Shown one piece after another: positions 32,345 through 46,355 of a stretch of DNA of 64,000 nucleotides (position 1 is its first letter; the number at the start of each line of letters is the position of its first letter). The stretch is from Rubrivirga marina (GTDB lineage: Bacteria > Bacteroidota > Rhodothermia > Rhodothermales > Rubricoccaceae). The stretch covers positions 1,948,944 through 2,012,943 of the forward strand of contig NZ_MQWD01000001.1 in NCBI RefSeq assembly GCF_002283365.1, in the 5' to 3' direction. The notes under the pieces were generated by a model. That model had not been told where the DNA came from. It saw only the letters and a list, made by a program, of their open reading frames with translations, and made no database searches. The translations under genes were made by a program, and so were the position numbers.

Positions 32345-35110
32345 ATGCTGACTCGGTTCTCCCTGCGCCCCGCCCGTCTGGTCGCGCTCGCGTTCGCCGC
32401 CCTCGTGCTGATGGCCGCGACCGCGAGCGCCCAGACCGGCAAGCTCTCCGGCCGCGTGACCGACACGAACGGCCAGCCCCTCATCGGGGCCTCCGTCCTC
32501 GTCGTCGGGACCACCTACGGCGCGGCCACCGACATCGACGGCGTCTACAACGTGCTCCGGATTCCCCCGGGCCCGATCTCCGTCCGCGTCAGCAGCATCG
32601 GGTACCAGACCCAGGTGGTCGAGGGGGTCCAGATCGCGTCGAACCAGACGCGCGAGCTGGACGTCACGCTTCAAGACGAGACCGTGACCGGCGAGGAGGT
32701 CGTCGTGACGGCCGAGCAGCCGATCGTCGACGTGACCCAGACGAGCACGGTCCAGACGATCGGCCGGGACGACATCGACGCGCTCCCGGTCCAGGAGCTC
32801 AACGACGTCGTGAACCTCCAGGCCGGCGTCGTCGACGGGCACTTCCGAGGCGGCCGCCTCGGCGAGGTCCAGTACCAGGTCAACGGCGTCTCGGTCAACA
32901 ACCCCTACGACAACTCGTCGACGCTCACGCTCGACCGGTCGGTGCTCCAGGAGGTCCAGGTGATCTCCGGGACGTTCGACGCCGAGTACGGCCAGGCGCT
33001 CTCGGGCGTCGTCAACGCCGTGCTCCGGAGCGGCGACGCGAACCGCTACGAGGCCTCGTTCGAGGTGTTCAGCGGCGACTACGTCAGCCCCGGCAACGAC
33101 TCGACGCAGGTCCGGACGTTCATCGGCGGCATCGACTCGGTCGCGACCGTGGCCTACGCGCCTTACGTCAGCGACGTCGACCCGACGAACCGGCTGAACT
33201 TCCAGGCCAGCCTCAGCGGTCCGGTCCCGCTCGTGCCCAGCACGACCTTCCTCCTCAACGGCCAGCGGTTCGTGAACAACGGTCTCCTGGCGGGCGAGCG
33301 CCGGTTCGTGCCGACTGACTCGAGCGACTTCGAGCGGAACGTGTTCAACGGCTCCGGCGACGGGGCCGTCGTCCCGCTCGAGTACAGCCGGCGGTGGTCG
33401 TACCTCGGCAAGCTGACGAACACCTCGATCTCGAACGTCCAGCTGGCCTACCAGGCCATCGGCGCCTTCCGCGACGCGCTGCCCGGGAACGCGGCCTCCT
33501 ATGGGTACCGGTTCAATCCGGACGGCCTGAGCAAGCAGCACGAGGTCTCGCTCGTCCACGGGTTCGACGTGCTCCACACGCTCTCGAACAACGTGTTCTA
33601 CGAGCTGAGCCTCCGGCAGAACTACTTCGACTACTCCGACTACGCGTTCGAGAGCCTCGGGACGCTGCCCGAGACGGGCACGCGCGTCCCCCTCCCCGAC
33701 GACTCGCCGTACCTGGCGGGCGGCCGGCCCATCGGCTCGCAGAACTACGAGAACGGGGCCATCATCCAGGGCTACGACCTCGGCCGGTTCGTCCAGCGGA
33801 CGAACGCGTACGTGGCCAAGAGCGCCGTCACGGCGCAGGTCACGAACGTCCACCTGCTCAAGGCCGGGTTCGAGATCCAGCGCTCGGACGTCGAGTTCGG
33901 GACGCCCGGCTCGGTCCAGCCGCTCGTGATCAACGGGGTCCAGCGGCTCGGCGTGCTCCGCGACACGCTGGGCGCGCAGGTCATCGACTTCCAGCCGGTC
34001 CAGGGCGCGGCGTTCGTGCAGGACCGGATCGAGTGGGGCGACCTCCGGGTCCGCGCCGGCCTCCGGTTCGAGTACTTCGACGCCAACGCGACCGTCCCGA
34101 GCGACCTCCGGAACCCGGCCAACGCGATCCCCGACGCGCCCGAGTCCCGGCCCGTCGACACGTCGGTCAAGTTCGCCGTGGCGCCCCGCCTCGGCGTGTC
34201 GTTCCCGTTCCTTGACCGGGCGAGCCTGTTCTTCTCGTACGGCCACTTCTACCAGCTCCCCGGGTTGGGAACGTTCTTCAACAACGCCGACTACTCGGTC
34301 CTCCAGGACCTCCAGCAGGGGAACGAGGGCGAGCAGGGGATCCTCGGGAATCCCGACCTCGACCCCGAGTTCACGGCCCAGTACGAGTTCGGGTTCAAGA
34401 GCCAGGTCACGCGCGACCTCGGCCTCGACGTGAGCCTGTTCTACAAGGACATCCGGGACCTCCTCGGCGTCGAGTTCATCCAGACCTACACGGCCGCGCA
34501 GTACGCGCGGTGGACGAACGTCGACTTCGGCAACGTCCGCGGGTTCACGATCGCCGTCGACCAGCGCGCGCTGGGGCCGCTCTCGACCACGCTCGACTAC
34601 TCGTTCCAGATCGCCTCGGGCAACACGTCCGACCCGCGCGAGACGTTCAACCGCGTCCAGAACGGCGACGACGGGCTCCCGCGCGTGGCCCCGTTCGACT
34701 GGGACCAGCGCCACACGCTCAACGCGACGGCCATCGTCTCGGAGCCCGGCAACTACAACGTGACCGGCATCCTCCGGATGGGCACGGGCCGGCCGTACAC
34801 GCCGTCGATCGGGACCGGCTTCGGGGCCAACCTCGAGCCCAACTCGGGCCGGAAGGACCTCTCGGTCGTCGTCGACCTCCGGGCCGAGAAGGTCCTCGAC
34901 GTCGGCGGGGCCGGCGCGACCGCGTTCGTCCGCGTGTTCAACCTGTTCGACAGCTACTACCAGAACGGGTTCGTCTTCGCCGACACGGGGAGCCCGTACT
35001 ACACCCTCAACCCGCAGCAGCAGCTCAACCCCGACCCGACCCGGTTCGCCGACCCCCGGCGGATCGAGATCGGCCTCTCGCTGCGCGGCTCCCGGCCCGT
35101 CCGACGCTAA
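32345..35110 (+). CDS. TonB-dependent receptor of the glycan locus (SusC-like, no SusD partner)
   Basis: The 921-residue protein starts at ATG 32345 with a signal peptide ending TASAQ. A CarboxypepD_reg-like domain (about residues 30-115: GKLSGRVTDTNGQPLIGASV) precedes a plug (about 120-240: VVVTAEQPIVDVTQTSTVQT, VNGVSVNNPYDN, EYGQALSGVVNAVLRSGD). A long barrel follows, ending IGLSLRGSRPVRR. It belongs to the oligosaccharide-type TonB receptors common in Rhodothermia. SusD is absent from the window; the CBM9 protein before it and the 1,095-residue surface protein after it are the likely extracellular partners. It should import glucan oligosaccharides made by the surface GH144 enzyme. The hairpin at 35118 follows the stop. 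Confidence 0.9.
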   Translation: MLTRFSLRPARLVALAFAALVLMAATASAQTGKLSGRVTDTNGQPLIGASVLVVGTTYGAATDIDGVYNVLRIPPGPISVRVSSIGYQTQVVEGVQIASNQTRELDVTLQDETVTGEEVVVTAEQPIVDVTQTSTVQTIGRDDIDALPVQELNDVVNLQAGVVDGHFRGGRLGEVQYQVNGVSVNNPYDNSSTLTLDRSVLQEVQVISGTFDAEYGQALSGVVNAVLRSGDANRYEASFEVFSGDYVSPGNDSTQVRTFIGGIDSVATVAYAPYVSDVDPTNRLNFQASLSGPVPLVPSTTFLLNGQRFVNNGLLAGERRFVPTDSSDFERNVFNGSGDGAVVPLEYSRRWSYLGKLTNTSISNVQLAYQAIGAFRDALPGNAASYGYRFNPDGLSKQHEVSLVHGFDVLHTLSNNVFYELSLRQNYFDYSDYAFESLGTLPETGTRVPLPDDSPYLAGGRPIGSQNYENGAIIQGYDLGRFVQRTNAYVAKSAVTAQVTNVHLLKAGFEIQRSDVEFGTPGSVQPLVINGVQRLGVLRDTLGAQVIDFQPVQGAAFVQDRIEWGDLRVRAGLRFEYFDANATVPSDLRNPANAIPDAPESRPVDTSVKFAVAPRLGVSFPFLDRASLFFSYGHFYQLPGLGTFFNNADYSVLQDLQQGNEGEQGILGNPDLDPEFTAQYEFGFKSQVTRDLGLDVSLFYKDIRDLLGVEFIQTYTAAQYARWTNVDFGNVRGFTIAVDQRALGPLSTTLDYSFQIASGNTSDPRETFNRVQNGDDGLPRVAPFDWDQRHTLNATAIVSEPGNYNVTGILRMGTGRPYTPSIGTGFGANLEPNSGRKDLSVVVDLRAEKVLDVGGAGATAFVRVFNLFDSYYQNGFVFADTGSPYYTLNPQQQLNPDPTRFADPRRIEIGLSLRGSRPVRR

Positions 35111-35177: not shown

Positions 35178-38100
35178 ATGACTTCGACGCACCGCCTCTC
35201 CGCTGCCCTCGCGCTGCTCCTGGCCGCGCTGGCGCCGGCCGCCGGCGCCCAGGCGCCCCTGCCCACCACGCCGCCCGAGTTCCGCGGCCAGATCAACGCC
35301 GAGCGCCAGGGGCTCCACGACGCCAACCGGATCCGGACCCTGTTCTACAACTACGGCATGGTCGGCGACTTCGAGGGGAACGCCGACCTCAGCGTGTTCC
35401 ACTCGGTCGAGGTCCCCCGCGGCATCGGGCTCAACTACTCCGACGGCATCACGCCGTACGTCCTCGCCCGCGTCACCCAGGAGAACGGGACCCAGGCCTA
35501 CGTCATGCTCACGGGGTTCCGCGAGCGCCAGGCCCGGAGCCCGCTCACCAACCGCATCATGCGGTTCGAGCCGCGCCCGGGCTACGTCGAGACCGACCCC
35601 GAGATCAACGAGGGCACGGCCGTCGCCATCTCGAACGACTTCCGGACGTGGCCCGGCGCGGCCAACCTCAACGAGGAGTTCGACCCGGCCACGGACCCGA
35701 CCGAGTGCTGGTACGACAAGCGGGACGACCCCGACGACCCGGGCTGGTGCGGGTCCTGGAACGGGTTCTTCGGCAAGCGGCCCAACGCCGACCAGGAGTC
35801 GTTCTTCGTCATGGACGACAACTACTACGACGCGTTCGCCTTCTTCCCCGACAGCCGGGACCGGACGCGGCGCGGGCTCGGCCTCCGCGTCGAGGTCCGC
35901 GGCTTCCAGTGGGCCAACCCGCAGGCCCAGGACGTCATCTTCTGGCACTACGACATCGTCAACGAGTCGACGACGCGCTACGACGACATCATCTTCGGGC
36001 TCTACATGGACTCGGGCGTCGGCGGCTCGGGGCTCTCGTGCGACGGCGTCGCCGAGTCCGACGACGACAACGCCCGGTTCGTGCGGAACCTCAACGGGCG
36101 CGACCTCGACCTCGTCTACACCTGGGACGAGGGCGGCCACGGCGTCTCGCTGAGGTCGAACTGCGAGGAGACCGGCTACCTCGGCTACGCCTACCTCGAG
36201 ACGCCCGGCGACGCGACCGACGGCCTCGACAACGACGCCGACGGGATCACCGACGAGCGCCGCGACAACGAGCCCGGCGACCCGGTCGTGGGCCAGGACG
36301 CCATCCGCGCGGCCATGCTGGCCCGGGGCTACGACCTCGCCCAGTTCGAGATCGAGTACGGCCCGCTCGAGCAGCGGCCGGCCTACGTCGCCGGCATCTG
36401 GTTCCCCGGCGACGAGGACCTCGACTGGACCGCCGAGTTCTCCGACACCGGCGCCGACGGCGTCTACGCCGACGACCGGACGTTCGGCAGCGGCGAGCCC
36501 GACACGGGCGAGAACGACGGGATCCCCACGCCCGGCGAGCCCAACTTCAACCAGACCGACATCACCGAGTCGGACCAGATCGGGCTCACGGGGTTCAAGC
36601 TCAACCGGATCCGGGGCTCGGGCGAGGTCGACGGCATCGTGTTCTTCCAGAACGAGAGCCGGTGGCCCGAGCGGCTCTACGAGCAGTTCTCGGACGAGAA
36701 CCCGAACGTCCGCTTCGACCCGACGATCGTCAACAACTACAACATCGGGTTCCTCTTCGCCTCGGGCCCGTTCACGCTCGACGTCGGGCGGCGGGAGCGG
36801 TTCAGCCTCGCGCTCGCCTACGGCTCGAACCTGACGGACCTCCAGGACAACGTCGAGGTCGTCCAGTCGATCTACGACGCGAACTACCAGTTCGCCACGC
36901 CGCCGCCGCTCCCGACGGTCCAGGCGTTCGCCGAGGACGGCCAGGTCACGCTCGTGTGGGACACCCGCGCCGAGCGCTCCATCGACCCGGTCACGAACCT
37001 CAACGACTTCGAGGGCTACCGGGTCTACCGCTCGACCGACCCCAACTTTCTCGACCCGCAGGTCATCCTCGACGGCCGCGGCACCGGGCCCATCGGGAAT
37101 GGCCGGCCCATCGCCCAGTTCGACCTCGACAACGACGTCAACGGGTACTCGAACCTCGCCGTCAGCGGGATCCAGTACTACCTCGGAGACGACACCGGCA
37201 TCACGCACCGGTTCACGGACACCGACGTCGTCAACGGACAGACGTACTACTACGCCGTGACGGCCTACGACTCGGGCTCGGAGGCCTTCAACTTCTACCC
37301 GTCGGAGAACTCGATCACGGTCTCGCGGACGCTCCGCGGCGGGACGATCCTGCCCCCAAACGTGGTCCAGGTCCGACCGAACGCCCGCGTGCCCGGCTAC
37401 GTCGGCGCGACGGCGTCGGAGCCGCAGCGCGTCTCGGGCGAGGGCACGGGCACGGTCACCGTGAACGTCCTGAACTCGGACGTCGTCCCGGAGGGCCGCT
37501 TCCGGGTCGAGTTCGAGGGCTCGGCCGACAGCGTCGCCGCGCGGACGTACTCGCTCGTCGACCTCGACTCGGGCGAGGTCCTGGTCGAGGGCGGGACGGA
37601 CTTCGCGGGGGCCGAGACCGGGCCGATCTCGGCCGGCGTCCAGCCCGTCGTGACCACGCTGGCCGGCGTCACGCCCGACCCCGACGCCAGCGGGTTCACG
37701 TCCGGCTCGACGAGCACGACGCTGACCGGGTCGTACATCGGGCCGCTCTCGCCGAACCTCATCCGCGAGGGGTACCCCGAGGACGTGGTCCTCGAGTTCG
37801 CCGACACGCCGCTCACGACGTCGCGGGCCGCGATCGGGCAGCCGCCGACCCCGGCCAACTTCCGCCCGACCGGGGCCGACTCCGGCTTCGAGTACGAGTT
37901 CTTCTACCGCGAGCTCAGCGGCGACAACACCCTCAACGCGGCCGGCGAGTTCATCGACCTCCTCACGCCCGACCCCGCCTCGGGCGCGCTCCGGGCCACC
38001 TGGCGCATCGAGGTCACCGAGGCCGGCGACGCGCCAGGCGCCGGCGACACGTTCCGCCTCGTGGTCCTCACGCCGTTCGGCCCCGACGACGCGTTCACGT

Positions 38101-38465
38101 TCACGACGACGCCGGCCCGCGTCGACGCCGCGGCGGCGCAGGAGCAGTTCGAGGAGCAGGAGCCGTACGTCGTGCCGAACCCGTACGTCGCCGCGGCCTC
38201 GTTCGAGCCCGAGCGGTTCGCGACGGCCGGCCGCGGCGAGCGCCGCATCGAGTTCCGCGCGATCCCGGCCGGCGCGACGGTCCGGATCTACACCGTCACC
38301 GGCGACCTCGTCCAGACGCTCGCGCACGACGGGATGACGACGGGGATGGTCCCGTGGAACCTCCGCACGAAGGACAACCTCGACGTCGCGCCGGGCCTCT
38401 ACATCTTCCACGTGGACGCCCCGGACGTGGGCGAGCACGTCGGCCGGTTTGCCATCATCAAGTAG
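35178..38465 (+). CDS. Large secreted surface protein with FN3-like region and T9SS-type C-terminus
   Basis: This is a 1,095-residue exported protein (signal ending PAAGAQAP). Residues about 60-570 form a region without a recognised domain, with paired Cys (ECWYDKRDD...GWCGSW), DGLDNDADGITDERRDNEPG (thrombospondin/calcium-type turn) and many aromatic-acidic strands. An FN3-like domain lies at about 575-710 (FAEDGQVTLVWDTRAERSID; FEGYRVYRSTDPNF; TYYYAVTAYDSGS). At about 855-965 is a module shared with the GH144 enzyme two genes downstream. The C-terminus (PYVVPNPYVAAASFEP; IYTVTGDLVQTLAHDG; PGLYIFHVD) is T9SS-like. It sits between the TonB receptor and a PorV-like protein. I infer a surface glycan-binding or scaffold role; no catalytic motif is seen. 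Confidence 0.8.
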   Translation: MTSTHRLSAALALLLAALAPAAGAQAPLPTTPPEFRGQINAERQGLHDANRIRTLFYNYGMVGDFEGNADLSVFHSVEVPRGIGLNYSDGITPYVLARVTQENGTQAYVMLTGFRERQARSPLTNRIMRFEPRPGYVETDPEINEGTAVAISNDFRTWPGAANLNEEFDPATDPTECWYDKRDDPDDPGWCGSWNGFFGKRPNADQESFFVMDDNYYDAFAFFPDSRDRTRRGLGLRVEVRGFQWANPQAQDVIFWHYDIVNESTTRYDDIIFGLYMDSGVGGSGLSCDGVAESDDDNARFVRNLNGRDLDLVYTWDEGGHGVSLRSNCEETGYLGYAYLETPGDATDGLDNDADGITDERRDNEPGDPVVGQDAIRAAMLARGYDLAQFEIEYGPLEQRPAYVAGIWFPGDEDLDWTAEFSDTGADGVYADDRTFGSGEPDTGENDGIPTPGEPNFNQTDITESDQIGLTGFKLNRIRGSGEVDGIVFFQNESRWPERLYEQFSDENPNVRFDPTIVNNYNIGFLFASGPFTLDVGRRERFSLALAYGSNLTDLQDNVEVVQSIYDANYQFATPPPLPTVQAFAEDGQVTLVWDTRAERSIDPVTNLNDFEGYRVYRSTDPNFLDPQVILDGRGTGPIGNGRPIAQFDLDNDVNGYSNLAVSGIQYYLGDDTGITHRFTDTDVVNGQTYYYAVTAYDSGSEAFNFYPSENSITVSRTLRGGTILPPNVVQVRPNARVPGYVGATASEPQRVSGEGTGTVTVNVLNSDVVPEGRFRVEFEGSADSVAARTYSLVDLDSGEVLVEGGTDFAGAETGPISAGVQPVVTTLAGVTPDPDASGFTSGSTSTTLTGSYIGPLSPNLIREGYPEDVVLEFADTPLTTSRAAIGQPPTPANFRPTGADSGFEYEFFYRELSGDNTLNAAGEFIDLLTPDPASGALRATWRIEVTEAGDAPGAGDTFRLVVLTPFGPDDAFTFTTTPARVDAAAAQEQFEEQEPYVVPNPYVAAASFEPERFATAGRGERRIEFRAIPAGATVRIYTVTGDLVQTLAHDGMTTGMVPWNLRTKDNLDVAPGLYIFHVDAPDVGEHVGRFAIIK

Positions 38466-38473
38466 CCGCCGCC

Positions 38474-39502
38474 ATGACCCGCACGCTGACTCCGCCGACC
38501 TGGCGGTTCTCCCTCGTCCTGCTGGCGGCCCTCGCCGCCTCGGTCGCCGCCTCGGCCCAGACCAAGACCGGGACCACGTTCGGCCAGTTCTTGCTGATCG
38601 AGCCCAGCGCCTCCGTCGCGGCCCAGGGCAACGTCGGCGCGACGGCCCGGACCGACGCGCTCTCGACGTATTACAACCCGGGCGCGCTCGGCTTCCAGAC
38701 CGCCTCGAACGTCGGGTTCTCGCACAGCACGTGGCTGGCCGACATCGACTTCAACCACGCCGCGGTCGCGCTCAAGATGGGCTCGGCCTCGACGCTCTCG
38801 CTGGCGGTCACGTCGCTGGCCTCGGGCGACATCGAGGTCCGCACGCCGGACCAGCCGCTCGGGACCGGCGAGCTGTACTCGGTCCAGGACCTCGCCATCG
38901 GGCTCGGCTACGGGCGCCAGTTCACCGACCGGTTCGGCGCGGGCGTCAACGTGAAGTACGTCCGCGAGACGATCTGGCGGAGCTCGGCCCAGACCATCGC
39001 CCTCGACGCGGGCGTGATCTACGAGCTCCCGTTCCGGGCCACCCTCGGGGCGAGCATCACCAACTTCGGCGTCCCGGCCAGCTTCGACGGGACCGACCTC
39101 CGGATCCGGTTCGACCAGGACCCCGACACCTTCGGCGACAACGACAACCTCCCGGCCGCGCTGGAGACCGAGGAGTTCGCGCTCCCCGTCTTCTTCCGCG
39201 TCGGGATGAGCTACCCGGTCCAGCTCGGCGACAGCCGCCTCGTCCTGGCCGCCGACGCCTACCAGCCGAGCGACAACAGCAACAGCGTCTCGGTCGGCGG
39301 CGAGTGGTCCTACGCCGACCTCGTCTTCGCCCGGGCCGGCTACCAGGACCTCTTCCTCGAGGACGCCGAGGGCGGGCTCCGCGTCGGCGGCGGCCTGAAA
39401 TACCGCGTCTCCGGCTTCGACTTCGCCTTCGATTACGCCTGGGCCGACCACGGCAGCCGGCTCGGCGCGACGCAGCGGTTCACGCTCGGCCTCGGCTTCT
39501 AG
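38474..39502 (+). CDS. PorV/UPF0164-family outer-membrane barrel protein
   Basis: The 342-residue protein has a signal peptide ending ASVAASAQT. The typical family opening LIEPSASVAAQGNVGATART, then DALSTYYNPGALGFQT, is followed by a chain of amphipathic strands to the terminal aromatic RFTLGLGF. PorV-type proteins are 14-strand barrels that carry T9SS substrates from the translocon to the attachment complex; others in the family have no known role. It starts 8 bases after the 1,095-residue protein, so they are co-translated. A copy inside a glycan locus suggests a dedicated shuttle or anchor for the T9SS-tagged proteins encoded around it. Confidence 0.8.
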   Translation: MTRTLTPPTWRFSLVLLAALAASVAASAQTKTGTTFGQFLLIEPSASVAAQGNVGATARTDALSTYYNPGALGFQTASNVGFSHSTWLADIDFNHAAVALKMGSASTLSLAVTSLASGDIEVRTPDQPLGTGELYSVQDLAIGLGYGRQFTDRFGAGVNVKYVRETIWRSSAQTIALDAGVIYELPFRATLGASITNFGVPASFDGTDLRIRFDQDPDTFGDNDNLPAALETEEFALPVFFRVGMSYPVQLGDSRLVLAADAYQPSDNSNSVSVGGEWSYADLVFARAGYQDLFLEDAEGGLRVGGGLKYRVSGFDFAFDYAWADHGSRLGATQRFTLGLGF

Positions 39503-39530: not shown

Positions 39531-39610
39531 GAGAGGACGGCGGAGTGACGACGGCCACGGCGCCGCTCGCTTCGCCCTCACCCCCGCCTGTCCCGCCTCC
39601 CCGACCCCTC

Positions 39611-42445
39611 GTGTCCCGTCTGCTCGCCCTGCTCGCCGTCCTCCTGACGGCCGGCGCCGTCCACGCCCAGACGGCCACGGCCGTCTTCGACGAGGACGAC
39701 ACGCCGGGCGACGGCGCGTACGCGGCTTCCGACGGCGGCGCCGTCGGCAACGCGACGCTCGACCTCGCGGACGGCCGGCTCCCGATCGCCTCGAGCGGCG
39801 CCGTCAGCGGGGCGGACTACGGCGTCCTCACCTACGCGCATGGCGACGGCGGCGGCTGGTCGCTCCTCGTCGGCGCCCCCGGCTTCCCGGCCCTCGACCT
39901 CACCGAGGCGGACAGTGTCGTCGTTTTCCTCAACGGCCCGGTCGGCGTGCCGGGCGTGGCGCTTCCGCGGCTCGCGCTCCAGGACGCCGACGGCGACCGG
40001 ACGGTCGGCGTGTCGCTCGACTTCGGCACGCGCGTGGGCTTCGCCCCCAACGAGAGCGGGTTCCTCGACGGCTCGGCGACCGACCTCATGGTGTCCGTGA
40101 GCTACGTCGAGTCGCTCCCGGCCGAGGTCGCGCGGCCCGGCTACCCCGAGTCGATCCGCCTCACGTTCGCCGACGAGGTCGTGGCGACCTCGACCGCCTC
40201 GATCGGCTTCCCGGCGCTCCCGGCCCGGTTCACCGTCGCCACGGAGGCGGGCCTGGAGCTCGCGTTTCGGTTCGTGGACACCGACGGGGACGGGACGCTC
40301 AGCACCGACGGCGAGTACGTCGAGGTGCTGACGGAGGACCCGGCGACGGGCTCGCTCCGACAGACGTGGCGCATCGAGGCGCAGAACGACCCGGCGTCGC
40401 CGCCCGCCACGGGCGACGCGTACCGCCTCGGCGTGTTCAACGGCGGCGTCGACGGCGATCCTGGGACGTGGCAGCGCCGGGCCGTCGCCGTCAAGGACTT
40501 CGGGCCCCTCGGCGCCGTCGACGCGGCCCGGATCGCGGGCGTCGTGTTCGAGAACACCGAGGCGACGACGAGCGAGCGGACGCTCTGGATCGACGCGATC
40601 TCGGCGCTCGTCTACGATGGCGACCCCGAAGGCCCGGCCCCGCCGACGGCGATCGTGGCGGAAACGGGCGACCGCTCGGTCCGCCTGAGCTGGACGCCGG
40701 CGGACGGCTCGCTCGGCGTCGTCGTGTTCCGCCAGCCGGCGGCCGGCGGCCCCTACGAGCGCGTCACGCCGACGCCCGTCCGCTTCGACCACTGGTTCGA
40801 CCTCGGCGTCGACAACGGCGAGGCCGTCCGCTACGTCTTGCGATCGACGGCCTCCGGTGGCATCGGCTCGCGGATCCAGGGGCCGGACTCCGGCCCGGTC
40901 GAGGCCGCGGCCGAGGCGGGCGCGCCCGACGTCTACATCGAGGACACGGCGCGGCGCGCGTTCGACTTCTTCTGGGAAGAGGCGAACCCGGCGAACGGGC
41001 TCGTCAAGGACCGGAGCACCGAGGGCTCGGCCTCGTCGATCGCGGCCGTCGGGTTCGGGCTTTCGGCCATCACGGTCGCGATCGACCGCGGCTGGATCAC
41101 GCGCGAGGAGGGCGTCGAGCGGACGCTGAACACGCTCGACTTTTTCGCGACGTGCTCGCAGGGCGACCAGAGCACAGGTGTCTGCGGCTACCGCGGGTTC
41201 TTCTACCACTTCCTCGACATGCAGACGGGGCTCCGCCGCGGCACGACGGAGCTCTCGACCATCGACACGGCGCTCCTCCTCGGCGGCGTCCTCCACGCGG
41301 CGCAGTACTACGACGGCGACGGCGCCGAGGCCGACATCCGCGCCCGCGCCGACCAGATCTGGCGGCGCGTCGAGTGGGACTGGGCCGCCAACCGGCCGCC
41401 GCTCGTGGCGCTCGGCTGGAAGCCCGAGGAAGGGTTCGCCATCTGCAACGGCGGGCTCTGTGACTGGACTGGGTACAACGAGGCCATGATCCTCTACGTC
41501 CTCGGCCTCGGCTCGCCGACGCACCCGCTCCCCGACGACGCCTGGGACGCGTGGACCGCCGGCTACGCGGGTCAGTGGCAGACCCACTACGGCTACGAGT
41601 TCCTCACCTTCCCGCCTCTCTTCGGTCACCAGTACAGCCACGTCTGGATCGACTTCCGACACATGCAGGACGACTACATGCGGGGCCGCGGGATCACCTA
41701 CTTCGAGAACTCCCGCCGCGCGACGCTGGCGTCCCGGGCCTACGCCATCGCCAACCCCGGCAACTTCCCCAACTACTCCGCCGAGGAGTGGGGGCTGACG
41801 GCCTCCGACGACCCGTTCGGCTACCGGGCCCACGGCGCGCCGCCGGCCCAGAGCGACAACGGGACCATCACGCCGACGGCCGCGGGCGGCTCCTACGCCT
41901 TCACGCCCGACCTCTCGCGCGAGGCGCTCCGCACGTTCTACGCCCGCTACACCAACGGCCTCTGGGGCGACTACGGCCTCAAGGACGCCTACAACGTCGA
42001 GGAAGGGTGGTTCGCGAGCGACTACCTCGGCATCGACCAGGGCCCGATCGTGCTCATGATCGAGAACGAGCGGACGGGCGCCATCTGGGAGTCGTTCATG
42101 ACCCACCCGGACGTCCGCGCCGGGCTGGAGCGGGCCGGGTTCGACGTGCCGGCCGTGGCCGAGGAGCCCGAGCCGGGCACCGAGGCGGCCACCCTCAATC
42201 GCCCCGCCCCGAACCCGACCGCCGGCTCCGTCCGCCTCGGCGTGTCGCTCGCCGAGGCCGGCCCGGCCCGCCTGACCGTCCACGACGCGCTCGGCCGCCG
42301 CGTCGCCGTCGTCGCCGACGGGCCGCTCGCGGCCGGGGCGCACGCGCTGTCGTGGGACGCCTCGGCCGTCGCGTCCGGCGTCTACGTCGTCCGTCTGGAG
42401 GCCGCCGGCCTCGTCCGCACCCGCACCGTCGTCGTCACCCGATGA
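39611..42445 (+). CDS. T9SS-anchored GH144-family (PF10091 'glucoamylase') enzyme
   Basis: The protein has 944 residues from GTG 39611, which gives a clean signal peptide (LLALLAVLLTAGAVHAQ); an earlier GTG at 39545 is less likely. In order: an N-terminal beta domain (about 20-160); a module shared with the 1,095-residue protein (about 161-276); a continuation ending DAISALVYDGD; an FN3-like domain (about 343-430); and an (alpha/alpha)6 domain of PF10091/GH144 type (about 438-840). The last carries AFDFFWEEANPANGLVKDRS, RGFFYHFLDMQTG, ELSTIDTALLLGGVL, GYNEAMILYVLGLGSPTHPL, FGHQYSHVWIDFR and YLGIDQGPIVLMIENE, and a T9SS sorting domain closes the protein (about 856-944). Characterised GH144 enzymes are endo-beta-1,2-glucanases. 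Its stop overlaps the GH3 start (ATGA). Confidence 0.87.
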   Translation: MSRLLALLAVLLTAGAVHAQTATAVFDEDDTPGDGAYAASDGGAVGNATLDLADGRLPIASSGAVSGADYGVLTYAHGDGGGWSLLVGAPGFPALDLTEADSVVVFLNGPVGVPGVALPRLALQDADGDRTVGVSLDFGTRVGFAPNESGFLDGSATDLMVSVSYVESLPAEVARPGYPESIRLTFADEVVATSTASIGFPALPARFTVATEAGLELAFRFVDTDGDGTLSTDGEYVEVLTEDPATGSLRQTWRIEAQNDPASPPATGDAYRLGVFNGGVDGDPGTWQRRAVAVKDFGPLGAVDAARIAGVVFENTEATTSERTLWIDAISALVYDGDPEGPAPPTAIVAETGDRSVRLSWTPADGSLGVVVFRQPAAGGPYERVTPTPVRFDHWFDLGVDNGEAVRYVLRSTASGGIGSRIQGPDSGPVEAAAEAGAPDVYIEDTARRAFDFFWEEANPANGLVKDRSTEGSASSIAAVGFGLSAITVAIDRGWITREEGVERTLNTLDFFATCSQGDQSTGVCGYRGFFYHFLDMQTGLRRGTTELSTIDTALLLGGVLHAAQYYDGDGAEADIRARADQIWRRVEWDWAANRPPLVALGWKPEEGFAICNGGLCDWTGYNEAMILYVLGLGSPTHPLPDDAWDAWTAGYAGQWQTHYGYEFLTFPPLFGHQYSHVWIDFRHMQDDYMRGRGITYFENSRRATLASRAYAIANPGNFPNYSAEEWGLTASDDPFGYRAHGAPPAQSDNGTITPTAAGGSYAFTPDLSREALRTFYARYTNGLWGDYGLKDAYNVEEGWFASDYLGIDQGPIVLMIENERTGAIWESFMTHPDVRAGLERAGFDVPAVAEEPEPGTEAATLNRPAPNPTAGSVRLGVSLAEAGPARLTVHDALGRRVAVVADGPLAAGAHALSWDASAVASGVYVVRLEAAGLVRTRTVVVTR

Positions 42446-44769
42446 GACCCGTGAACCGACCCCTCCCGCTCTTCGCCCTCCTGCTGGCGGTCGCCGCCAG
42501 CGCGCAGCCGGGCGCCAGCCCGCAGCGGGCGGCGTTCTACGCCGGCTACGACCTCGACGCCGAGGCCGCCTTAGTCGAGGACCTCCTCTCGCGGATGACG
42601 CTCGACGAAAAGCTCGGCCAGCTCACGCAGTACACCGGCCAGTGGGCCGTGACGGGCCCGGCCGTGCCCGAGACGGGCGAGGACGAGATCCGCGCCGGCC
42701 GCGTCGGCTCGTTCCTCAACGTCTACGGGGCCGACTACACGCGCCGCGCGCAGGAGGTGGCCGTCGAAGAGAGCCGCCTCGGCATCCCGCTCCTGATCGG
42801 CTACGACGTGGTCCACGGCTTCCGGACGGTCTTCCCGGTCCCGCTCGCCGAGACGGCCTCGTGGAACCTCGACGCCGCCGAAATGGCCGCGCGGATCGCC
42901 GCGCGCGAGGCCGCGGCGTCGGGCATCAACTGGACGTTCGCGCCGATGGTCGACATCGCCCGCGACGGGCGGTGGGGGCGGATCGTCGAAGGCGCGGGCG
43001 AAGACCCGTTCTTGGGGAGCCGCTTCGCCGAGGCGCGCGTCCGCGGCTTCCAGGGCCACACCCTCCCCGGCCTCGCGTCGGACTCGACGGTCGTCGCCAC
43101 GGCCAAGCACTTCGCGGGTTACGGCTTCGCCGAGGGCGGCCGGGACTACAACACGACGGACTTCTCAGAGCGGACGCTCCGCGAGGTCGTCCTCCCGCCG
43201 TTCTACGCCGCCGTCGAGGCCGGCGCGCAGACGCTGATGTCGGCGTTCAACGAGATCGGCGGCGTCCCGGCGACGGCCAGCGAGCACCTCTACGGCGACA
43301 TCCTCCGCGACGAGTGGGGCTTCGACGGGTTCGTCATCGCCGACTACACGGCCGTCCGCGAGCTGATGTGGCACGGGATCGCGGCCGACAGCGCCGAGGC
43401 CGGCCGTCGCGCGCTCTCGGCCGGCGTCGACATGAGCATGGTCGACGGGATCTACGCCCGGAACCTCCCGGCGCTCGTCGAGAGCGGCGACCTGCCGATG
43501 GCGGTCGTCGACGAGGCCGTCCGCCGCGTGCTGCGCGTCAAGCGCCGGGCGGGGCTGTTCGAGGACCCGTACCGCTACTCCGACGCCGAGCGCGAGGCCC
43601 GAACGCTCCTCGCCGACGCCCACCGCGCCGCGGCCCGCGACGTGGCCCGCCAGTCGGTCGTCCTCCTGAAAAACGACGGCGACGTGCTGCCCCTCCGCCG
43701 CGACCTCCCCACGCTCGCCGTCATCGGCGCGCTCGCGGCCGACTCGACCTCGGCGATGGGCTCGTGGGCCGGCGCCGGCCGCTGGACCGAGACGACGCCG
43801 ATCCTCCCGGCCCTCCGCGCGGCGCTCCCCAACACCGACGTCCGCTACGCCCCCGGCTACCCCGTCGTCCGCGGCACCTTCCTCGAGATGGTCGACCTCG
43901 CGCTGTCGATGGACACGTCCGGCCACGCCGAGGCGGTCCGCCTCGCGGCCGAGGCGGACGCGGTCGTCCTCGTCCTCGGCGAGCACCGCGAGCTGACGGG
44001 CGAGGCCGCCAGCCGGGCCAGCACGGAGCTGCCGGGCGCGCAGCTGGAGCTGGCGCGGCGCGTGATCGAGGCCGCCGGCGACACGCCCGTCGCGGTCGTC
44101 CTCACGAACGGCCGTCCCCTCGCTCTCGCCGACCTCGACGCGATCGCCCCGTCGATCCTGGAAGTGTGGCATCTCGGGACCGAGATGGGCCCGGCCGTCG
44201 CCGACGTGCTCCTCGGCTATCACAACCCGGGCGGCAAGCTGCCGGTCACGTTCCCGGCCGCGACCGGGCAGGAGCCGATCTACTACAACCGAAAGCGGAC
44301 CGGCCGGCCGCACGACGTGCCGTACGCCTCCGACAAGTACGTTTCGCGCTACCTCGACGTCCCGGTCGAGCCGCTCTACCCGTTCGGCCACGGCCTGAGC
44401 TACACGACGTTCGCCTACGCCGAGCCGACGCTGAGCGCGACGGAGATCGGCATCGACGGCTCGGTCGAGGTCTCGGTCGACGTGACGAACACGGGCGACC
44501 GGGCCGGGGTCGAGGTCGTCCAGCTCTACGTCCACGACGAGGAGCGGAGCACGACGCCGCCGGTCCAGGAGCTCAAGGGCTTCGAGCGGGTCGAGCTGGC
44601 GCCGGGGGAGACGCGGACGGTCACGTTCACGCTCGCGCCGGACGACCTCCTGTTCTGGGGAATGGACGTCCCGGCCTGGACGGTCGAGCCCGGGTGGTTC
44701 ACCGTCATGGTCGGCGGCTCGTCCCTCGACGCGATGAGCCGTACCGCGCGCTTCGAACTCACCGACTAG
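42442..44769 (+). CDS. GH3 beta-glucosidase
   Basis: The 775-residue exported enzyme (signal ending AASAQPG) has the three-part layout of GH3 beta-glucosidases. The TIM-barrel domain (about 35-370) has IPLLIGYDVVHGFRTVFPVP, KHFAGYGFAEGGRDYN and the nucleophile region GFVIADYTAV (Asp301). The alpha/beta sandwich (about 390-600) contains SVVLLKNDGDVLPL and GEHRELTGEA. A C-terminal fibronectin-like domain carries VTNTGDRAGVEVVQLYVHDE. It releases glucose from non-reducing ends of oligosaccharides in the periplasm. Translation is coupled to the GH144 gene by a 4-base ATGA overlap, which links the two activities. By context it would act on sophorose and sophorooligosaccharides. Confidence 0.92.
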   Translation: MRPVNRPLPLFALLLAVAASAQPGASPQRAAFYAGYDLDAEAALVEDLLSRMTLDEKLGQLTQYTGQWAVTGPAVPETGEDEIRAGRVGSFLNVYGADYTRRAQEVAVEESRLGIPLLIGYDVVHGFRTVFPVPLAETASWNLDAAEMAARIAAREAAASGINWTFAPMVDIARDGRWGRIVEGAGEDPFLGSRFAEARVRGFQGHTLPGLASDSTVVATAKHFAGYGFAEGGRDYNTTDFSERTLREVVLPPFYAAVEAGAQTLMSAFNEIGGVPATASEHLYGDILRDEWGFDGFVIADYTAVRELMWHGIAADSAEAGRRALSAGVDMSMVDGIYARNLPALVESGDLPMAVVDEAVRRVLRVKRRAGLFEDPYRYSDAEREARTLLADAHRAAARDVARQSVVLLKNDGDVLPLRRDLPTLAVIGALAADSTSAMGSWAGAGRWTETTPILPALRAALPNTDVRYAPGYPVVRGTFLEMVDLALSMDTSGHAEAVRLAAEADAVVLVLGEHRELTGEAASRASTELPGAQLELARRVIEAAGDTPVAVVLTNGRPLALADLDAIAPSILEVWHLGTEMGPAVADVLLGYHNPGGKLPVTFPAATGQEPIYYNRKRTGRPHDVPYASDKYVSRYLDVPVEPLYPFGHGLSYTTFAYAEPTLSATEIGIDGSVEVSVDVTNTGDRAGVEVVQLYVHDEERSTTPPVQELKGFERVELAPGETRTVTFTLAPDDLLFWGMDVPAWTVEPGWFTVMVGGSSLDAMSRTARFELTD

Positions 44770-44822: not shown

Positions 44823-46355
44823 ATGTCCACCCCGTCCGACACGCTCCGCGAGTGGGGGGAGGCCCTCAAGCGCGCCCTCCAGGGCCTCCTCGGCCGGGGC
44901 GATGAGCCGCAGCCGGTCCCGGTCCGGGTGAAGATGCTCGCGTTCGTGCTGCTGGCGGCGTCCGCCGATGCGCAGCCGCGGAACGTGGTGTTCATCCTCT
45001 CGGACGACCACCGCTACGACTTCTTCAGCGCGCACCCCAACGCGCCGGCGTTCCTCCGGACGCCGAACATGGACCGGATGGCGACCGAGGGCGCCCACCT
45101 CGCCAACGCGTTCGTCACGACGAGCCTCTGCTCGCCGAGCCGCGGCTCGATCCTGACCGGCCGCTACGCCCACAACCACGGGATCGTCGACAACACGAGC
45201 CCGATCCCCGAGGGCACGCGGTTCTTCCCGCAGGACCTCCAGGCGGGCGGCTACCGGACGGCCTACGTCGGCAAGTGGCACATGGGCGAGGTCGACGACG
45301 CGCCGCAGCCGGGCTTCGACCGGTGGGTCTCGTTCCGCGGGCAGGGCGCCTACACGGACCCGCTCCTCAACATCGACGGCGCCCAGGTCCAGCACGAGGG
45401 GTACACGACGGACCTCCTGACGGACTACGCCGTCGAGTTCCTCGAGGCGCAGGACGGGTCGGAGCCGTTCTTCCTCGAGCTCTCCCACAAGGCCGTCCAT
45501 GCCGAGTTCAGCCCGGCGCCGCGCCACCGTGGGACCTACGCCGACGTGACGATCCCGTACCCCGAGACGATGTGGCCGACCGAGCGGAACGTCCTCGGCA
45601 AGCCCCACTGGGTGCGGGCCCAGCGCGGGAGCTGGCACGGCGTCGACTTCATGTTCCACGGCGACCTTGGGCCGGGCCAGAGCGGGTTCGACAACTTCTA
45701 CCGCCGCTACACCGAGACCCTCCTGGCGCTGGACGAGAGCGTGGGCCGCGTGCTGGAGACGCTCGAACGGCTCGGCCTGGCGGAGAACACGCTGGTCGTC
45801 TACATGGGCGACAACGGGTTCCTCCTCGGCGAGCACGGGCTGATCGACAAGCGGAACGCGTACGAAGAGTCGATCCGGGTCCCGATGCTGGCCTGGGCCC
45901 CGGGCTGGATCGAGCCGGGCACGCGCGTCGAGGCGCTCGTCCGCAACATCGACGTCGCGCCGACCTTCCTGGAGCTGGCGGGCACCTCGACCTCGATCGA
46001 CATGGACGGGACGTCGTTCCTCGACCTCCTCCCGGGCGGCGCCGAGGCGGGCGGGGCCGGCCGCGAGTTCCTCTACGAGTACTACTGGGAGTACGCCTTC
46101 CCCCACACGCCGACGACGTTCGCGCTGCGGGGCGACCGGTACAAGTTCATCTACTACCACGGCGTCTGGGACACCGAGGAGCTCTACGACATCGCGGCCG
46201 ACCCGGAGGAGCGGGTCAACCTCGTGGAGGCCCTCCCGGAGGTCGCCGCCGACATGCGGAGCCGGCTCTTCGACCGTCTCAGCGAGGACGACGCGATGCG
46301 GGTCCCGATGCGCCGCGGCAACTGGAACGCCGACGAGCGGCTGCTCTACGACTGA
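44823..46355 (+). CDS. Type I (formylglycine) sulfatase
   Basis: As annotated the protein has 510 residues. The sulfatase domain shows the metal-binding VVFILSDDHRYDFF, the formylglycine motif LCSPSRGSILTGRYAHNHG with Cys103 in C-x-P-S-R, then KWHMGEV, ELSHKAVHAEF and YMGDNGFLLGEHG. These are all the expected S1-family signatures, for exported aryl- or carbohydrate-sulfate hydrolysis. Oddly, a signal-like segment (MLAFVLLAASADAQ) begins only at residue 38. The first 37 residues are an amphipathic helix and a PQPVPVRVK stretch, so the true start may be ATG 44934. The next gene encodes the activating formylglycine-generating enzyme. The substrate is unknown; by context a sulfated glucan. Confidence 0.87.
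   Translation: MSTPSDTLREWGEALKRALQGLLGRGDEPQPVPVRVKMLAFVLLAASADAQPRNVVFILSDDHRYDFFSAHPNAPAFLRTPNMDRMATEGAHLANAFVTTSLCSPSRGSILTGRYAHNHGIVDNTSPIPEGTRFFPQDLQAGGYRTAYVGKWHMGEVDDAPQPGFDRWVSFRGQGAYTDPLLNIDGAQVQHEGYTTDLLTDYAVEFLEAQDGSEPFFLELSHKAVHAEFSPAPRHRGTYADVTIPYPETMWPTERNVLGKPHWVRAQRGSWHGVDFMFHGDLGPGQSGFDNFYRRYTETLLALDESVGRVLETLERLGLAENTLVVYMGDNGFLLGEHGLIDKRNAYEESIRVPMLAWAPGWIEPGTRVEALVRNIDVAPTFLELAGTSTSIDMDGTSFLDLLPGGAEAGGAGREFLYEYYWEYAFPHTPTTFALRGDRYKFIYYHGVWDTEELYDIAADPEERVNLVEALPEVAADMRSRLFDRLSEDDAMRVPMRRGNWNADERLLYD

What the first reader, a model, noticed from the sequence alone, without database searches (positions are those of the whole stretch)
37755..38075. A ~110-residue module shared by the 1,095-residue surface protein and the GH144 enzyme
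Residues about 855-965 of the surface protein and 161-276 of the GH144 enzyme align along their length, with matched anchors: GYPEDVVLEFADT with GYPESIRLTFADE; AAIGQPPTPANF with ASIGFPALPARF; LLTPDPASGALRATWRIEV with VLTEDPATGSLRQTWRIEA; and GDTFRL with GDAYRL. I do not recognise it as a named domain. Two otherwise unrelated surface proteins of one locus sharing it suggests a docking or glycan-binding module.
Basis: seen in the sequence. Interest (0 to 1): 0.7.

Follow-up and report, generated by a model that had tools for sequence, protein, structure and literature searches.

The report
Surface-protein domain copied into neighbouring glucanase
A bacterial enzyme predicted to cut beta-1,2-glucan carries, wedged inside its sugar-binding-like domain, a copy of an unnamed domain from the neighbouring cell-surface protein, which suggests that both proteins grip the same partner or sugar in an uptake system that has not been worked out.

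Summary
The shared module is real: 42% identity over 132 residues, E 5e-24, shuffle z about 40. It extends a little beyond the stated coordinates and matches no Pfam or NCBIfam family. AlphaFold gives both copies the same strand order at high confidence; nothing solved in the PDB resembles it.

In the surface protein the module is the second half of a ~240-residue domain found in 77 of 198 genomes sampled from the phylum. In 14 of 14 other surface-protein loci examined, the gene bearing it lies between a TonB receptor and a PorV-like barrel.

In the GH144 enzyme the module is an insertion splitting a CBM30-like domain. GH144 relatives outside the window's order, including solved enzyme 5z06, have that domain uninterrupted; seven genomes of the order share the insertion. 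The surface protein itself is a regular neighbour of GH144. The likeliest history is a copy of the neighbour's domain landing in the enzyme gene, then vertical inheritance.

Residues special to GH144-locus modules (Arg863/Arg197, Tyr853/Tyr187 and others) are kept in both proteins and absent from related modules elsewhere, which favours a shared, retained binding role. Whether it binds glucan or a protein cannot be decided from sequence.

The parts
37680..38066 (+). Module in the surface protein (P0001 residues 835-963)
   Evidence: BLASTP with the GH144 copy, E 5e-24; confident model
38067..38108 (+). Last strand of the surface-protein module (LTPFGPDDAFTFTT, residues 964-977), missing from the enzyme copy
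   Evidence: alignments A2 and A3; models
37383..37679 (+). N-terminal half of the same ~240-residue domain (P0001 residues 736-834), absent from the GH144 enzyme
   Evidence: this half matches surface proteins, not the GH144 enzymes; model covers both halves
35178..38465 (+). Large surface protein, 1095 aa, with signal-peptide-like start and type IX-like C-terminal domain
   Evidence: C-terminus weakly like the PorZ C-terminal domain, E 0.002
38169..38462 (+). Type IX-like C-terminal domain of the surface protein (residues 998-1095)
   Evidence: weak matches; read from sequence
38474..39502 (+). PorV/PorQ-family outer-membrane barrel
   Evidence: NF033709 E 1.3e-51, above cut-off
32345..35110 (+). 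TonB-dependent receptor with N-terminal carboxypeptidase-regulatory-like domain
   Evidence: PF00593 E 9.5e-26, PF13620 E 1.2e-19; ATG start inferred
39545..42445 (+). GH144 enzyme, 966 aa, with type IX sorting tail
   Evidence: PF10091 E 1.1e-78; GH144 structures 5gzh, 5z06, 8xul; TIGR04183 above cut-off
39671..40036 (+). First part of the CBM30-like domain of GH144 (residues 43-164)
   Evidence: CBM30 in 5 of 11 homologues, best E 5.9e-8; CBM30/CBM11 structures found with the model
40046..40438 (+). Inserted copy of the module in GH144 (residues 168-298)
   Evidence: gap in uninserted relatives; absent from 5z06 at this point
40439..40624 (+). Second part of the CBM30-like domain (residues 299-360)
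40634..40864 (+). FN3-like domain of GH144 (residues 364-440)
   Evidence: PDB 3mpc Fn3-like match, E 8.5e-4
40928..42142 (+). GH144 catalytic domain (residues 462-866)
40277..40318 (+). EF-hand-like acidic loop DTDGDGTLSTDGEY in the GH144 module (residues 245-258)
   Evidence: weak EF-hand hits; acidic pattern kept in module relatives
37911..37952 (+). Same loop, partly degenerate (ELSGDNTLNAAGEF), in the surface protein (residues 912-925)
   Evidence: alignment
37764..37766 (+). Arg863 codon of the surface protein, invariant in GH144-locus modules
   Evidence: 33 of 33 surface proteins, 7 of 7 enzymes, 0 of 18 other modules
40133..40135 (+). Arg197 codon of GH144, the counterpart of Arg863
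42442..44769 (+). GH3-type glycosidase gene of the same locus
   Evidence: ORF, start; homologues in the same place in related loci

Best explanation
The module is the C-terminal half of an unnamed, probably calcium-stabilised beta-rich domain that sits just before the type IX-like sorting domain in a large family of surface proteins. Such proteins are encoded between a TonB receptor and a PorV-like barrel, so this one most likely stays on the cell surface as the receptor's outer partner, held by its PorV-like barrel (inferred, by analogy with PorZ-PorQ). In this locus the system most likely takes up beta-1,2-glucan fragments. In an ancestor within the window's order (taken to be Rhodothermales) a copy of the module from the locus's own surface protein was inserted into a loop of the CBM30-like domain of the GH144 gene about 2 kb downstream, and has been inherited since. 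Because the enzyme copy keeps the locus-specific residues, it most likely still does what the surface protein's copy does: recognise the same target, either the glucan or a protein of the uptake complex, so that cutting happens next to the receptor. Shown: homology, insertion site, distribution, gene order, residue retention. Inferred: direction of transfer, calcium, binding, role.
For: Homology. Insertion: GH144 relatives L016, L017, L024, L025 and PDB 5z06 have the CBM30-like domain without the module, while seven GH144s of the window's order carry it at the same place. The surface protein with the module is present beside GH144 even where the enzyme lacks it. GH144 modules group by host protein, six of seven together (98/91), within the surface proteins of the same order. 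Catalytic domains of all seven lie in one clade, 97% SH-aLRT. TonB receptor - surface protein - PorV order in 14 of 14 other surface-protein loci and in the GH144 loci with complete contigs. Locus-specific sites kept at 84% in enzyme copies, against 92% for structural sites and 52% over all columns. The genome encodes SprA of the type IX system.
Against: No binding data. Topology tests reject neither a single GH module clade (p 0.21-0.24) nor a tree with the surface copies held together (p 0.275), so the direction of transfer rests on distribution. Retention of locus-specific sites could partly be inheritance, because the enzyme copies descend from that group. The module shows few conserved aromatics, unlike most carbohydrate-binding modules (reading of the alignment). 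The enzyme copy lacks the N-half and the last strand. One GH144 of the order (G009/L013) shows no module, but its gene is cut short at the 5' side.
Confidence: 0.5

Rival explanations
1. The module binds beta-1,2-glucan directly: a new carbohydrate-binding module used by both the surface protein and the enzyme.
For: It sits inside a CBM30-like domain of a glucanase. Arg863/Arg197 and Tyr853/Tyr187 are typical of GH144-linked modules and absent from modules of other loci, as expected for ligand-specific residues.
Against: The full domain also occurs in loci without GH144 and in esterase-like proteins, so sugar binding would have to vary. No aromatic platform is evident. No fold match to any CBM.
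Confidence: 0.3
2. The module is a protein-docking element that holds the enzyme and the surface protein to the TonB receptor, or to each other, on the cell surface.
For: The domain family is linked to a TonB receptor and PorV-like barrel; residues differ between triads as cognate partners would; an enzyme gaining its neighbour's domain would be recruited to the same complex.
Against: The esterase-like copy of the own genome lies outside a triad (L173). No complex was predicted or measured.
Confidence: 0.35
3. The inserted module is a structural passenger that became fixed: a stable beta domain tolerated in a loop of the CBM30-like domain.
For: Insertion of an autonomously folding domain into a loop can be tolerated (general knowledge); acidic EF-hand-like loop that may stabilise the fold.
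Against: Retained in seven genomes of five families at 35-71% identity over the N-terminal region, with locus-specific sites conserved nearly as well as structural ones.
Confidence: 0.2
4. The module acts through the CBM30-like domain on one end of the active-site cleft and so sets exo- against endo-action.
For: A GH144 homologue with an extra N-terminal region is an exo-enzyme releasing sophorose (PMC8861115, PMC11842490); the solved GH144 5z06 has the CBM30-like domain.
Against: The position of the insert relative to the cleft was not modelled; the full-length enzyme was not folded.
Confidence: 0.1

Closest known systems
BDI_3064, GH144 enzyme of Parabacteroides distasonis (PDB 5z06)
   Same: CBM30-like N-terminal domain ahead of a GH144 catalytic domain; sequence and fold matches
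   Different: Only three residues where the window enzyme carries the ~130-residue module
CBM30 (PF21582; PDB 1wmx, 1wzx, 2c24) and CBM11
   Same: Fold of the part of the GH144 N-terminal domain outside the insert; PF21582 found in 5 of 11 homologues
   Different: The window protein itself does not reach Pfam's CBM30 in a direct scan; the module is not part of CBM30
Beta-1,2-glucan gene cluster of Ignavibacterium album (IALB_1177-1187, PMC8861115)
   Same: GH144 enzymes with a TonB-dependent transporter proposed to import the fragments
   Different: The passages read mention no module-bearing surface protein or PorV-like partner; it was not compared here gene by gene
PorZ-PorQ and type B cargo with PorP/SprF (type IX secretion)
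   Same: A type IX exported protein thought to be kept at the surface by its own PorV-like barrel (review PMC10202324)
   Different: The triad here adds a TonB receptor; retention of the C-terminal domain on the barrel was not tested
SusC/SusD nutrient uptake pairs
   Same: TonB receptor with a cell-surface partner and glycoside hydrolases in one locus
   Different: No SusD among the four proteins scanned; the receptor is far below the SusC/RagA cut-off (82.7 against 368 bits)

Membership tests
CBM30-like domain (GH144 residues 43-164 + 299-360) | Profile match to PF21582 | tested here: inconclusive
   5 of 11 homologues match, best E 5.9e-8; the window protein does not match on its own
CBM30-like domain (GH144 residues 43-164 + 299-360) | CBM30 fold | tested here: met
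   Foldseek probability 1.00, TM normalised to the target up to 0.66 with 1wzx
CBM30-like domain (GH144 residues 43-164 + 299-360) | Binds beta-glucan | not testable with these tools
   needs a binding assay
GH144 | Catalytic domain homologous to characterised GH144 enzymes | tested here: met
   8xul E 1.9e-116, 5z06 E 1e-68, 5gzh E 3e-64
GH144 | Beta-1,2-glucanase activity | not testable with these tools
   not assayed
EF-hand / calcium loop | Acidic loop D-x-D-x-D-G with a closing acidic residue | tested here: inconclusive
   Pattern present in the GH144 copy, below Pfam cut-offs; partly degenerate in the surface protein; closing D/E in all rows
Type IX sorting domain of the surface protein | Match to TIGR04183 or PF18962 | tested here: not met
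   Only weak FlgD_ig and PorZ C-terminus hits; the GH144 tail does match TIGR04183 above cut-off
SusC/RagA | TIGR04056 above its cut-off | tested here: not met
   82.7 bits against a cut-off of 368.25
PorV/PorQ family | NF033709 above its cut-off | tested here: met
   176 bits against 90

The most novel reading that the evidence does not exclude
The TonB receptor - module-bearing surface protein - PorV-like barrel triad is a widespread nutrient-uptake machine without SusD, in which a type IX exported protein takes the place of the SusD lid; the module is its recognition element, and in the window's order the glucanase borrowed it to join the complex.
Probability: 0.3. Interest if true: 0.85.

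Novelty: new variant of a known kind. Interest (0 to 1): 0.6.

Why it matters
It marks a testable target in a domain family that occurs several times per genome in many genomes of the phylum yet has no Pfam or NCBIfam entry. The borrowed copy is a natural experiment: half a domain moved into an enzyme while keeping locus-specific residues points to the part that recognises something. It could show how bacteria that pair TonB receptors with type IX exported proteins take up glycans.

Tried and rejected
Chance similarity: rejected. Known domain: rejected for Pfam and NCBIfam, with the window proteins and with all 39 homologues. Known fold: no confident PDB match for the surface region; virus-capsid hits in both fold searches have TM below 0.15 and were discarded. 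The recoverin EF-hand hits of the profile (E 0.002) reflect only the acidic loop. Recent gene conversion between the two genes: rejected, since enzyme modules group by host protein and not by genome. A first alignment of the enzyme region with added module rows (A4) misplaced the uninserted relatives; it was replaced by A6, in which those relatives enter as separate unchanged pieces. G009/L013 first looked like an uninserted enzyme of the same order, but the gene is cut short and is not counted. A fourth sequence was a filler and is not used. Paper searches found no description of the triad in the open library; subscription papers and preprints are not held, so this is weak evidence of novelty.

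Full report
What was checked. The surface protein (P0001, window 35178-38465) and the GH144 enzyme (P0002, 39545-42445) share one stretch, residues 835-964 and 168-298, at 42% identity, 96 bits, E 5e-24. A shuffle test puts the score about 40 standard deviations above chance. The quoted anchors are all present; the true start is a little upstream, at PDASGF / PNESGF (37680 and 40046). Neither Pfam nor NCBIfam has a family here, for the window proteins or for 39 homologues beyond scattered weak hits.

What the module is in the surface protein. It is the second half of a ~240-residue region. AlphaFold models the region with mean pLDDT 92.8 and pTM 0.83, almost wholly as beta strands; a PDB fold search gives nothing below E 0.001 and only TM scores under 0.3. 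A profile of the region finds matches in 77 of 198 genomes drawn from the phylum, up to 12 per genome, mostly in proteins of 1000-1300 residues. The window's own genome has eight matches, among them an esterase-like protein (L008/L173). In 14 of 14 examined surface-protein loci other than GH144 loci the gene order is TonB receptor, surface protein, PorV-like barrel.

The GH144 locus. The subfamily that P0001 belongs to is tied to GH144. The four genes TonB receptor - surface protein - PorV-like - GH144 recur in the window's order, and, as far as contigs allow, in Ignavibacteria, Caldithrix and Krumholzibacteriota relatives. In 10 of 11 further surface-protein loci from the phylum the triad has a GH144 gene nearby; the eleventh ends at a contig edge. 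A published Ignavibacterium album cluster with GH144 enzymes and a proposed TonB transporter for the fragments (PMC8861115) looks similar; the passages read do not mention the surface protein.

What the module is in the enzyme. It is an insertion. In the GH144 relatives L016, L017, L024 and L025 the N-terminal domain runs straight through, for example NLAQYLPSGIDGDTTTWQ, where the window enzyme has LDFGTRVGF, then the module, then GVDGDPGTWQ. L142, L143 and L146 are likewise uninterrupted. That N-terminal domain is CBM30-like: Pfam CBM30 matches 5 of 11 homologues, best E 5.9e-8, and the AlphaFold model (pLDDT 89.8) finds the GH144 enzyme 5z06, CBM30 and CBM11 in the PDB, with the alignment spanning the insert. 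In 5z06 the two halves of the domain are three residues apart at the insertion point. The module strands in the enzyme model start at 168, 193, 204, 222, 235 and 256, the same spacing, within a residue, as those in the surface model (155, 180, 192, 210, 223, 243). The enzyme copy lacks the N-half and the final strand.

When and from where. Seven genomes of the order, in five families, carry the insertion: G000, G001, G010, G013, G015, G023, G050. Their catalytic domains lie in one clade with 97% SH-aLRT support, together with one truncated gene. Their modules group by host protein, six of seven together with 98/91 support, and fall among surface proteins of the same order and locus type. Topology tests on about 139 columns cannot reject one origin (p 0.21-0.24), nor a tree with all surface copies held together (p 0.275). 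The direction, surface protein to enzyme, therefore rests on distribution: the module is in the GH144-linked surface proteins throughout, and in enzymes only within this order as far as sampled.

Is the enzyme copy under selection for the same job? Among positions conserved in 33 surface modules of the GH144-linked subfamily, 11 are also common in 18 modules of other loci (structural) and 10 are rare there (locus-specific). The seven enzyme copies keep the consensus at 92% of structural and 84% of locus-specific positions, against 52% over all columns. Arg863/Arg197 is invariant (33/33, 7/7, 0/18). Tyr853/Tyr187, Gly865/Gly199, Phe874/Phe208, Phe908/Phe241, Thr918/Thr251 and Glu924/Glu257 are kept in all seven enzymes. 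One, Asn860, is lost in all seven. Common descent accounts for part of this, so it is support and not proof.

Calcium. All module groups share an acidic loop, D-x-D/N-x-D-G ending in D or E, with weak EF-hand hits. In most copies from other loci and in the esterase-like ones the loop is one residue shorter. A calcium-stabilised loop is plausible and untested.

Mechanism offered. The surface protein is probably the outer partner of the TonB receptor, kept at the surface by its PorV-like barrel, as PorZ is thought to be held by PorQ (review PMC10202324). The genome encodes the SprA translocon, and the enzyme carries a type IX sorting tail. The module recognises the glucan or a component of this complex; the enzyme, by carrying a copy, is brought to the same target. 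Which of the two it recognises is open, and I put them at about equal odds.

Limits. No binding, complex or full-length enzyme structure was available. Literature searching covered open papers only.

Noticed in passing
L169-L172, L174-L183 (for example L169:7640-14920, minus strand): Strict gene order TonB receptor - large surface protein - PorV-like barrel in 14 of 14 loci; possibly a distinct nutrient-uptake arrangement without SusD.
   Followed up: partly
L008/L173 (G000:C1:998377-999141), L131, L160: Esterase-like secreted proteins carrying the whole ~240-residue domain before the sorting tail, outside a triad where the neighbourhood was seen.
   Followed up: partly
L120:13237-14931, L121:13153-14634, L123:11431-13128 and others: Many related loci hold a second, CBM-less GH144 of a separate clade downstream of the first.
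   Followed up: no
L013:3401-5143 (same as L108, genome G009): GH144 gene cut short at its 5' side within the CBM30-like domain; no TonB, surface or PorV homologue on the piece held.
   Followed up: partly
window 44823-46355: Sulfatase-like gene downstream of GH3; a homologue lies in the same region of L117, L118 and L125.
   Followed up: no
window 38169-38462: The surface protein's C-terminal domain is closest, weakly (E 0.002), to that of PorZ, the type IX protein thought to keep its C-terminal domain bound to PorQ.
   Followed up: no
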